Shown here: positions 39,985 to 42,896 of the stretch, in pieces
How the letters are laid out: each line of letters begins with the position of its first letter
Position numbering within the stretch: position 1 is the stretch's first letter
Assembly (NCBI GenBank): GCA_950295325.1
Contig: OX485805.1
Location: forward strand, 3,038,501-3,102,500
Reading direction: 5' to 3'
DNA: 64,000 nt
Source: Polytrichum commune
Lineage: Eukaryota > Streptophyta > Polytrichopsida > Polytrichales > Polytrichaceae
The notes under the pieces: model-generated
What the model saw: only the letters and a program-made list of their open reading frames with translations
The model's database searches: none
Told to the model about the DNA's origin: nothing
Position numbers and translations under genes: made by a program

Positions 39985-40990
39985 TGAGAAGCATCTTAAA
40001 ATTGTTTGAAACAAATTGTAATCTTTTGATCCCTTTTATTTTCTTCGTCATGTTTGTTGTGACTTTCTTGATGAGCTATGCGTTCATTGACCACTCTGAA
40101 CTTTGCGGACTAGGAAACTGATCAAGAATCTACTTGAACTTGAGCCGATTTTACTGGAAAATCTTGGTTTTCCTTACGCAAGAGTTCACATGAGAGCTAA
40201 GGCGATGTGATGTCATATGGGTGCAATGGTGCATTGGTCACTTGACAGACCACGACTTTTGTGGAATTCTTCAAACAAAGTCGCTCGAGTACTCCCTCCC
40301 CACTAACTAGATGTACAGTTTGTGCTGCACAATCACTTGAAGGGGGTTGACGGATCTTTGAAGCATCGAGGTTTTGTGACATCTGTTTCAGTATGTCCGA
40401 CATTTCGAGGGGATTTGAGCGTTCAATTTTTCTGTTTTACGTTCCAAAGATATGCCTTTGGTTGCTTTCAGGTTGGTCTAAAACCGGGGGGATTTTTTTG
40501 TCTCGAAGGAAAACCTTGCAAAGAATAACTGTAGGATGTGAGTTTCACAGCATTGCGTATGTCGCTATCTACGGAAGTCTGATTAAACTCTTATTCTTTT
40601 TTTTAGGTCCACCATGTCCTAAGATGATGGGGTCTGCTATGTGATCAGTCTCTGTCGTATAAGAGAATGGTGTGTTTTGCATCTCTGTGACCACTGGCAA
40701 TGTCTGGTATTTCTCGGCTAATCAAGTTAGAACTCGGCGTCATGCCAATCAACCACGAAAAATTAGAGCAGAGAATCACCGATGAATGGAGTATGGATCA
40801 TTGTCACGGGTTCCCCAAATCAATTGTACCAATGGGATCAATGACATTACACTAGTAAAAGATTTAATTCATGGGCTGAAAGCCATTCGCCAGGATGAAG
40901 GTTTTTGATAATCGGTTGATGTGTTCAATGTTGCGTATTGTGACTCGGACCTGGAACTTAATGTGATCCAAGTATTAAGCGCTTCTTTGT
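39985..40990 (+). pseudogene. Fragment of the NTMT1-type methyltransferase gene
   Basis: Aligns with 53520-54740 of the functional gene, introns included. Exon 5 is recognisable ([16 protein letters not shown] near 40210) but has an extra base after G-A-C-T-T-T and further changes near its donor. Exon 6 (L-K-P-G-G-F-F) is followed by a stop. Exon 7 is missing entirely. The [12 protein letters not shown] tail coding sequence follows directly, near 40725. Retained introns show duplication at the DNA level. It lacks the SAM-binding exons and is dead. Confidence 0.92.
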
Positions 40991-41274
40991 TCTTCAACTG
41001 ACCAATAAGATCATGCATTTCATCCGAAGTGGTAACATTTGTGATGTGGCAGGGATGGTTCAATTCAAGTATACCAATTCCAAGGCCTTCTCTAGGCTGT
41101 TATCCCAAGGAGTGTTCTGTGTTTTGGAAAACGAAAAGTCGACTTCACTGACAATGGCACACTTCACAGCCGCACTACATTTTGCTACACTCTTAATTTG
41201 CTTCATAAATTGGGTTAAGAAAAAATTTGGTCTTTGTAATGTGTGGAATAGCGGTTGACAAAGCGGCATGAGAG

Positions 41275-41475
41275 GACGTGCGTGACAGAGAGGGAGAGTT
41301 CACGGGAGTCCTTGCACGAGCGAGAACGAGCAGATCTTCTTCTGCCATACTAGACTATATGTTAGAAAAGTAAAAGTGTTTCCCAAACCACCAACTATCT
41401 GGAGACTTCTGGTTCCTTTCGAGCGATCCTTTTGGTCGAGTTGAAAACCTTGGAACCCAAGGAATCTACATTGTA
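41275..41475 (-). repeat. Duplicate of the kinase upstream region (45090-45340)
   Basis: Shared landmarks in the same order include GAGAGGGAGAG-like start, GAGCGAGAACGAGC, a degraded TATA segment (ACTATATG for CTATATATGG), AAAAGTAAAAGTGTTTCCCAA, CTTCTGG..TTCGAGCGATCC and CCAAGGAATCTAC. The kinase coding region is not included, so only the promoter and leader were duplicated. It sits between the NTMT1 and kinesin fragments. Confidence 0.82.
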
Positions 41476-41509
41476 AAAAAGTATACGTAAAGAATTATAT
41501 TATGACACA

Positions 41510-41843
41510 TTATATGAATTGTAGTGATGGTCCAGCTAAGATAGTTGAGGTGTCCAACGAGGATTGTTTAGGGTCCAACTAGGATTTATATCCACGTGGA
41601 TAGTGCCATGTATGCATCAAGGAGAGAGAACAAGATGCCCAGGATTCTATTCGAATATTCCCGCCGATGGAGCCGTGTCCACCGAGTATACAACCTGCAC
41701 AGAAGTTAGCTTTAGTTAGTTCTCGTATTGCAATTTTGTAGCGATATAGATAGTGTTTTTTGTACAAGATTGTAACAATCAATAAAGCATGAGTTTATCC
41801 ATTCTATTTTTATCGAGTAATTAGCATTTCCAACATACATCAC
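41510..41843 (+). mobile_element. Possible solo LTR
   Basis: Has the look of a retrotransposon LTR end: TTGTAACAATCAATAAAGCA at about 41772-41791 (polyadenylation-type signal) followed by a terminal TTCCAACA near 41835. The left boundary is uncertain and no paired LTR or target duplication was confirmed. Confidence 0.3.
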
Positions 41844-42896
41844 ACAAAATCCGGAGCAAATTCAGTTAATGAGGTCCGGACTCCTCAGGATCTCTATCAT
41901 GAAATAATTCTAAAACGCTGCATGTGAAGATCTTGAAGTCTGGCCGTGCATGCTTCACATAATTCACTTCATGAGCATCCTCTGCTATGTTGCAGGTGAT
42001 GACTTCGCGGCAAAGGGGCAACCTATTTGAATGGAACAAACAAGCTCATTCGTGACAATGAGACCTCATGTCGTTCACATGCCATTTTACACGTTTGTTT
42101 CGCTCAAAGTCCCTGTTGTTGTGGCATTTTGATGCAGATTATGGGTCCTACTGTTGCTCAGAGGTTACTGGGTGTACCGCTCTGGCACTGCAAAATTTCA
42201 TACGGGTTTAACGAGAGGCACTCAACGTAAAACCGTTTTTCGTGAATAAAGAGGGTTAGGAGTGATTGTGCCTTGGATCTTTCTCAAACTCCTTAAATTG
42301 CTGCAGCGAGAAACATGCACTGCAGTACTAGCCGGCAAGCTTTTCTTCATTGACTTGGTTCAAACTAAAGAGGTCATCGAAGAAAACCATTTCCGAGATA
42401 GCTTACAAAGCTATTAACAGAATGAACCTTGTGACCAAATGTCATGACCTCTTGCTGGATTCTCCAAGTCCTTCAAGTAAAAGCTGATTCGAATTTTTGA
42501 AGGATTTTCCAACATTTAAATCTCTTGGTTCCCATGAACATTCGAGCGGGCTTGGACACAGGTGTTGGTAAGTTCGTTGCTTTAAAATGGCAGCAATGAT
42601 TGACGTAACCGTGAAAGGTATTTCCCAAAATGACTTTGGAAAGTTTTTCTTTTTTTAAGAATATTAATTTGTGAAGTCTTTAAGCACCAGGGACTGATGA
42701 AGTGATGTGATGCTACATGTCCGAGTCTTTGAATCAATCTCCCCAATACAGAATAAGAATACGTGATGAACATCTCCTCAAAAGTTTTGTTTATTTGGCA
42801 TCACAATGTGGGTTTTGGTGTTTAACCCGGTGGCTGCAGGTCAATGAAGGACATGAGGAATTGGATGTCGCAGACACTATGGAGGACAGGAATTGT
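41838..42896 (+). pseudogene. Second fragment of the kinesin-8 gene, inverted relative to the parent
   Basis: Aligns with the minus strand of 12335-10752. It includes the end of exon 4, exon 5 (N-E-T-S-C-R-S-H-A-I-L near 42057-42090; parent [11 protein letters not shown]), a shortened piece of exon 6 (near 42300-42350), the intron before exon 8 and the start of exon 8 ([10 protein letters not shown] at 42839-42868). Most of exon 6 and all of exon 7 are deleted, and the copy breaks off inside exon 8 after M-E-D-R. Introns are retained. It carries neither the LINE nor the Tourist-like insertion seen in 1155-3290. Confidence 0.92.

What the first reader, a model, noticed from the sequence alone, without database searches (positions are those of the whole stretch)
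39985..42896. Intron-containing fragments of three local genes assembled side by side
Seen: within 2.9 kb lie an NTMT1 gene fragment (39985-40990), a copy of the kinase promoter/leader (41275-41475) and a kinesin-8 fragment (41838-42896). All three parents are in this window (53.5-54.7, 45.1-45.3 and 10.7-12.3 kb), and order and orientation differ from the parents. Introns are kept, so copying was at DNA level. Inference: this resembles transduplication (gene-fragment capture as by Pack-MULE or Helitron elements) or templated repair that stitched filler from nearby loci. That all donors lie within ~45 kb is unusual for transposon capture and favours a local mechanism. No Helitron end (TC..CTRR with hairpin) or enclosing TIR was found.
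Basis: partly seen in the sequence, partly recalled or inferred. Interest (0 to 1): 0.8.

Follow-up and report, generated by a model that had tools for sequence, protein, structure and literature searches.

The report
Patchwork of old local gene fragments
A 3-kb stretch of a plant chromosome is stitched together from decayed pieces of neighbouring genes, most likely left by several separate rounds of DNA repair that copied nearby sequence rather than by a gene-carrying transposon.

Summary
In detail: intron-bearing pieces of an NTMT1-type gene (39998-41226), a kinase-upstream-like sequence (41231-41472) and a kinesin gene (41840-42891) lie side by side. A single assembly from three parents in the window is weakened. 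The middle piece belongs to a small dispersed family; its closest relative is about 160 kb away, not the kinase at 45 kb. The 3' part of the NTMT1 piece occurs alone on C5 and shares loss of the last coding exon. The kinesin piece was recopied 160 kb away beside a second kinase. Donor divergence is uneven (11-26%), but so is it inside the one collinear kinesin piece, so age does not decide. No enclosing TIR pair or Helitron-like 3' end was found. A related locus, C3:3.218 Mb, carries a 24-bp filler matching this kinesin gene with 8 bp of microhomology. Best reading: serial, mostly local, templated patching of breaks, now non-coding. The kind is known; repeated use of the same donors is the interesting part. 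No related genome was available to test it.

The parts
39655..39957 (.). MITE with 23-nt terminal inverted repeats (internal part shortened) abutting the left edge; not a carrier of the assembly
   Evidence: Inverted repeat I1. Dispersed repeat: 40 of 1485 candidates scored, the window among them. Homology ends at the same place in the window and the 7 other copies that I aligned.
39998..40629 (+). N1: NTMT1-type gene piece, like 53528-54120, introns kept, K 0.164 (0.128-0.202)
40627..41226 (+). N2: rest of the NTMT1 piece (like about 54248-54342 and 54486-54721; 40980-41226 is shared with C5 only). Also alone at C5:17726806-17727381, reverse, with the same 7-base joint where 54343-54485 is missing
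   Evidence: K 0.284 to the donor, 0.300 to the C5 copy
41231..41472 (+). P: member of a small dispersed family, cut off at both ends in the window; one member lies upstream of the kinase. Closest relative: C3:3.238-3.240 Mb
41482..41839 (.). X: stretch without a donor; TTTCCAACA near its right end looks like the 3' end of an LTR (motif recalled, not shown by copy number)
   Evidence: One other place in the genome, the recopied K unit at C3:3243058-3243422 (2 of 2 candidates scored)
41840..42570 (+). K1+K2: kinesin gene piece, inverted relative to 12338-11810 and 11149-10945; K 0.280 and 0.224
42698..42891 (+). K3: kinesin gene piece, donor 10929-10748; K 0.127
52526..54535 (+). NTMT1-type gene, donor or closest relative (approximate limits)
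   Evidence: Methyltransf_PK exon matches; open frames
9174..13436 (-). Kinesin gene, donor (approximate limits)
   Evidence: Kinesin motor exons. A paralogue at C1:16.25 Mb matches it in short, exon-like stretches, 72-84%
43995..44996 (-). Intronless protein kinase ORF; upstream region 45175-45335 resembles P
   Evidence: Pkinase E 6e-59; ATG at 44996. Second copy at C3:3240635-3241663, 94% aa identity
1167..1933 (+). Second fragment of the kinesin gene in the window (donor 10009-10192 and 10808-10882), split by a ~420-bp MITE

Best explanation
The stretch is a decayed, non-coding patchwork built in several steps. Broken or gapped DNA was repaired by copying short stretches of other loci, mostly of the same chromosome region, and joining them end to end (ectopic synthesis-dependent strand annealing or gap filling closed by microhomology or non-homologous end joining). 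Deletions and transposon insertions followed. Shown: DNA-level copies with introns, no transposon ends found around them, pieces that also occur apart from each other, a younger mosaic nearby and a 24-bp filler from the same kinesin gene. Inferred: the repair pathway, the order of events and the direction of copying.
For: Introns are kept and pieces are inverted or reordered. The pieces also occur apart. N2 is on C5 with the same missing last exon. P-family members lie at C3:3.218 and C3:1.90 Mb with no N piece and no kinase coding match in the 10 and 6 kb read there. The K unit 41482-42467 lies at C3:3.2434 Mb beside a second kinase (K 0.051) and abuts a 3.73-kb copy of C3:3230293-3233978 (K 0.024). 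The kinase-flank/K-unit joint there shows TTGGA in both templates; 5 bp or more falls on 0.6% of random joints between these stretches. At C3:3.218 Mb a 29-bp insertion relative to C3:1.90 Mb holds 24 bp of this kinesin's motor exon (23 match), followed by TGCAAAAC present in both; the whole match is 33 of 35 bases, genome-wide E 3.9e-5, and the C1 paralogue does not match. The NTMT1 gene was also copied to C1 (donor 52730-53946, K 0.029).
Against: The old joints in the window are too diverged to show microhomology. Of three joints in the young mosaic only one shows clean microhomology; the K-unit/3.73-kb and 3.73-kb/43593 joints do not. Its parts differ in divergence: K unit 48 of 984, 3.73 kb 88 of 3681 (p 1e-4), kinase coding 27 of 1003 (p 0.013), kinase upstream 46 of 422 (p 7e-5), each against the K unit, so it is not clearly one event. 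N2, P, K1 and K2 have indistinguishable divergence (p 0.53), as one event would give. That P and N2 alignments stop at 41231 and 41226 only marks where the window switches; it is not independent evidence. P-family pieces also stand upstream of the second kinase, so K is not wholly separated from P there. No empty site in a relative could be looked at.
Confidence: 0.5

Rival explanations
1. One multi-template event (fork stalling and template switching, or one gap repair that switched between NTMT1, a P-family member and the kinesin gene) made the assembly in one go; later differences are decay.
For: N2, P, K1 and K2 have the same divergence (p 0.53). The pieces lie within 2.9 kb with short joints: 4 bases between N2 and P, 9 between P and X (X limit).
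Against: N1 is less diverged than N2, P and K1 (p 0.004, 0.002, 0.0005) but not than K2 (p 0.15), and K3 shows that this happens inside one piece. N2 and P occur apart elsewhere. X, without a donor, stands between P and K.
Confidence: 0.2
2. Relics of ordinary gene or segmental duplications in a duplication-prone region: larger copies of each gene once stood here and most of the sequence was lost.
For: Inside each gene piece the order is collinear with the donor, with internal deletions. The kinase region and the K unit were recopied into one place at C3:3.24 Mb. Window 43065-43593 has an old counterpart there (K 0.245). In the kinesin piece the exon 12081-12178 is less diverged (K 0.185) than the adjoining introns (0.288 and 0.337), though constraint on the donor alone could give that.
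Against: No kinase coding match beside P in the window at E 1e-5. Donor spacings of about 33 and 8 kb shrink to under 0.4 kb and orientations are mixed. In N1 exon and intron divergence are alike (0.112 against 0.115 and 0.165, approximate exon limits), so no sign of a long functional phase.
Confidence: 0.22
3. Transposon capture (Helitron, Pack-MULE, Pack-hAT or CACTA).
For: Elements of these kinds carry host gene fragments (PMC1947982, start of abstract in the search listing). MULE-like and hAT-type sequence exists in the window. Dispersed repeats lie on the left flank.
Against: Inverted pairs that span large parts of the block are only 12-14 nt. No perfect-stem hairpin plus CTRRT end on either side; chance expectation 0.08 and 0.07. 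The 12 of 12 scored candidates for 39985-42896 show no multicopy edge. On the right flank no multicopy match starts before 45504, but only 40 of 770 candidates were scored.
Confidence: 0.06

Closest known systems
Gene fragments copied as filler DNA during double-strand break repair in plants (Wicker, Buchmann and Keller 2010, 'Patching gaps in plant genomes'; not read, seen as described and cited in passages of PMC3445842)
   Same: Fragments copied to new sites by SDSA repair; pseudogene fate.
   Different: That account couples the repair to transposon insertion. Here no such insertion is shown, no empty site was available, and donors are partly local and reused.
Single-copy Pack-TIRs made by transposition-independent gap filling (PMC8277862; abstract and passages)
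   Same: Bias to donors in cis, microhomology of a few bases at breakpoints, single copies.
   Different: Those are enclosed by TIR transposons and studied in animals; here the adjacent MITE does not enclose the pieces.
Fragmented dispersed plant pseudogenes, compatible with NHEJ-SDSA filler copying (PMC7935947; parts of the abstract and passages)
   Same: Fragmentary coverage of the donor gene, flanks not conserved.
   Different: Here fragments of unrelated genes are joined end to end and several stay near their donors.

Membership tests
Templated filler / ectopic gap-repair duplication | Copy made at DNA level, introns included | tested here: met
Templated filler / ectopic gap-repair duplication | No transposon ends around the copy | tested here: met
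   No enclosing TIR beyond 12-14 nt pairs, no Helitron-like 3' end; right-flank copy number only partly seen (40 of 770 candidates)
Templated filler / ectopic gap-repair duplication | No target-site duplication around the copy | not tested
   The limits are too decayed to place it; only the flanks of a supposed LTR were looked at
Templated filler / ectopic gap-repair duplication | Microhomology or short untemplated bases at joints | tested here: inconclusive
   Old window joints too diverged. In related loci: TTGGA at one of three joints of the C3:3.24-Mb mosaic, TGCAAAAC at C3:3.218 Mb
Templated filler / ectopic gap-repair duplication | Empty site in a relative | not testable with these tools
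   No related genome is held ('It has no relatives here')
Helitron | Hairpin followed by CTRR at the 3' end | tested here: not met
   0 candidates in 42501-44500 (+) and 0 in 38501-40050 (-), perfect stems of 6 or more and a following T required; a decayed end would be missed, and the 5' TC end was not scanned
Pack-MULE / other Pack-TIR | Terminal inverted repeats enclosing the fragments | tested here: not met
   18 inverted pairs in 38800-43800; those spanning large parts of the block are 12-14 nt
Processed pseudogene / retrocopy | Introns absent | tested here: not met
   Intron sequence is present in the N and K pieces

The most novel reading that the evidence does not exclude
C3:3.04-3.25 Mb is a repair-patchwork hotspot in which the same few loci (this kinesin gene, this NTMT1 gene, the P family, this kinase) have served again and again as repair templates over at least three layers of divergence (K about 0.2-0.3, 0.12-0.16, 0.02-0.06). 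Template choice would then follow lasting physical proximity, and the region keeps a layered record of it.
Probability: 0.25. Interest if true: 0.6.

Novelty: new member of a known kind. Interest (0 to 1): 0.35.

Why it matters
It shows how intergenic plant DNA can be built from copied pieces of neighbouring genes without a visible transposon carrier. It offers a compact set of joints of different ages for testing whether repair templates are chosen by proximity. It also warns that such blocks can be mistaken for transposon-captured or new chimeric genes.

Tried and rejected
Transposon ends: the inverted-repeat search over 38800-43800 and a scan for perfect hairpin plus CTRRT on both flanks gave no enclosing pair or end. 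Decayed ends could be missed.

A solo LTR around the block (TGTTGGAAATG at about 39274, CATTTCCAACA ending about 41835; pair I5) was considered. The flanking 5-mers read differ and X has one other genomic place, so it stays a motif-level idea.

P as a copy of the kinase upstream region at 45 kb: rejected as the specific source, because P is closer to pieces at C3:3.238-3.240 Mb and the members at C3:3.218 and C3:1.90 Mb show no kinase coding match in the stretches read. A further 52-bp piece lies on C1.

'P occurs elsewhere with the same two limits': dropped on checking. The family runs past both limits in the C3:3.218 and C3:1.90 Mb members, so the limits are where the window copy is cut.

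Dating to decide on one event: not usable, the within-kinesin control fails too.

Controls for 'every gene has such fragments': window gene 57000-61500 (3 matches: itself and 2 stretches on C6 of 212 and 67 bases; 2 of 2 candidates scored) and the C1 kinesin paralogue (81 matches: itself, 5 in the C3 kinesin gene, 75 inside query 1407-1775, a dispersed repeat; 40 of 233 candidates scored) show no fragment copies. The gene at about 14-17 kb was not tested. The NTMT1 search (40 of 500 candidates scored) was swamped by a repeat and did not list the C5 copy, so more NTMT1 pieces may exist.

Copy number of 38780-39500 could not be read: the non-self rows fall in 39621-39960. 39500-39659 overlaps a ~300-bp dispersed repeat.

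Not done: transcripts, related genomes, naming of the organism.

Full report
What is there. The window is C3:3038501-3102500 of a 407.8-Mb genome in 64 contigs. Self-comparison of the window finds the three reported similarities: an NTMT1-type gene piece (39998-40980 against 53528-54721), a kinase-upstream-like piece (41318-41469 against 45175-45335) and an inverted kinesin piece (41840-42891 against 12338-10748). E-values run from 8e-148 to 7e-9. The alignments run through introns, so the copies were made from DNA. The reading frame is broken by small insertions inside the NTMT1 exon; a TGA also lies in its domain match, but matches at other copies of that gene show one as well, so that alone proves little.

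Fine anatomy. The NTMT1 piece lacks two donor stretches: about 54121-54248 (joint at GATGATGGGGT) and 54343-54485 with the last coding exon. A homologous stretch on C5 (17726806-17727381, reverse) covers 40636-41226 and lacks the same last exon, with 7 bases at the joint in both. The window and C5 pieces therefore most likely share an ancestor that was already damaged, although their divergence from each other (K 0.300) is no smaller than that from the donor gene (0.284 and 0.286). P (41231-41472) has relatives at C3:3.218 Mb, at C3:1.90 Mb, upstream of both kinase genes, and in pieces further upstream of the second kinase. The last are closest (K 0.145 over 162 sites; 0.317 for the kinase upstream region in the window, 152 sites). 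P is thus a small dispersed family with a member upstream of the kinase, and the kinase at 45 kb is not its likely source. The family extends past both limits of P in other members, so P is cut off in the window. X (41482-41839) has no donor.

Neighbourhood. At C3:3.2401-3.2434 Mb lies an inverted copy of window 45450-43905, 43845-43708 and 42467-41482. It holds a second kinase ORF (27 differences over 1003 sites, NG86 dN 0.026, dS 0.034) and the K unit (K 0.051); the kinase upstream region is more diverged (K 0.118). No NTMT1 piece was found there; one 71-bp match at E 0.004 spans the MITE end and the first bases of N1. The K unit is followed directly by a 3.73-kb copy of C3:3230293-3233978 (K 0.024), which contains dispersed repeats, and then by a much older counterpart of window 43593-43065 (K 0.245). 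The joint 43708/42467 shows TTGGA in both templates; the other two joints show no clean microhomology. Five bases or more fall on 0.6% of random joints of these two stretches. I read the window as the source of the K unit because its kinesin piece continues past 42467; this is inference. At C3:3.218 Mb the P-family sequence carries 29 bp that C3:1.90 Mb lacks. Of these, 24 match this kinesin's motor exon (23 identical), and the next 8 bases, TGCAAAAC, are common to kinesin and flank; the full match is 33 of 35 bases. The C1 paralogue has no comparable match. The NTMT1 gene has also given a 1.2-kb copy to C1 (K 0.029, donor 52730-53946), and the kinesin gene a further piece to window 1167-1933.

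Ages. Differences to the donor: N1 86 of 586, N2 55 of 234, P 39 of 152, K1 113 of 488, K2 39 of 202, K3 21 of 182. The six are not homogeneous (p 7e-5); N2, P, K1 and K2 are (p 0.53). K1 and K3 differ (p 0.0007) although they are collinear parts of one donor copy, so rate differences or gene conversion are at work. The case against one event rests on N2, P and K also occurring apart, which later partial recopying of one assembly could in part also explain.

Transposon test. On the left edge stands a MITE at 39655-39957 with its own terminal repeats, and beyond it a piece of another dispersed repeat (39500-39659). Neither encloses the block. No enclosing TIR pair and no Helitron-like 3' end were found; no multicopy match starts on the right flank before 45504 among the 40 of 770 candidates scored. 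Two control genes show no such fragments, one of them in a capped list.

Mechanism. The most likely account is serial ectopic templated repair: a break or gap is filled by copying nearby sequence, sometimes from two templates, and closed by end joining, with microhomology at some joints. The product is then eroded. Which enzyme pathway acted is inference. Known counterparts are gene fragments used as filler DNA in plants (Wicker et al. 2010, as cited in passages of PMC3445842), gap-filling Pack-TIRs with cis bias (PMC8277862, abstract and passages) and dispersed fragmentary plant pseudogenes (PMC7935947, passages). I made no search for a report of this locus. The kind is known. What stands out is that the same few loci appear as donors repeatedly within about 0.2 Mb. 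While checking this report I lowered the best explanation from 0.55 to 0.5 and raised each of the three rivals by 0.01-0.02, because the shared limits of P proved not to be independent evidence, the kinesin exon is less diverged than its introns, and some copy-number lists are capped.

Noticed in passing
window 49119-50879: 1.76-kb element with ~409-bp terminal inverted repeats 99% identical and an 8-9-bp flanking duplication (ATCACATA); looks like a young non-autonomous MULE-type element. Its interior was not searched.
   Followed up: partly
window 1216-1640, 3515-3943, 34587-35025, 37290-37700: About 420-bp MITE in four copies (TIR like AAGGTAGAAATACCATAACC); the first sits inside the second kinesin fragment.
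   Followed up: partly
window 1167-1933: Second fragment of the same kinesin gene, direct orientation, about 8 kb from the donor.
   Followed up: partly
L002, C3:3240635-3241663: Second open copy of the intronless kinase, about 160 kb away and inverted, dN/dS about 0.76 (few changes), so perhaps relaxed.
   Followed up: partly
L004, C1:77361890-77363121: A 1.2-kb piece of the NTMT1 gene, 96% identical, on C1; one end lies at what looks like a donor 5' splice site.
   Followed up: partly
window 36183-36824: ORF with a hAT C-terminal dimerisation domain.
   Followed up: no
window 31460-32456 and 13715-14531: Imperfect tandem-like direct repeats.
   Followed up: no
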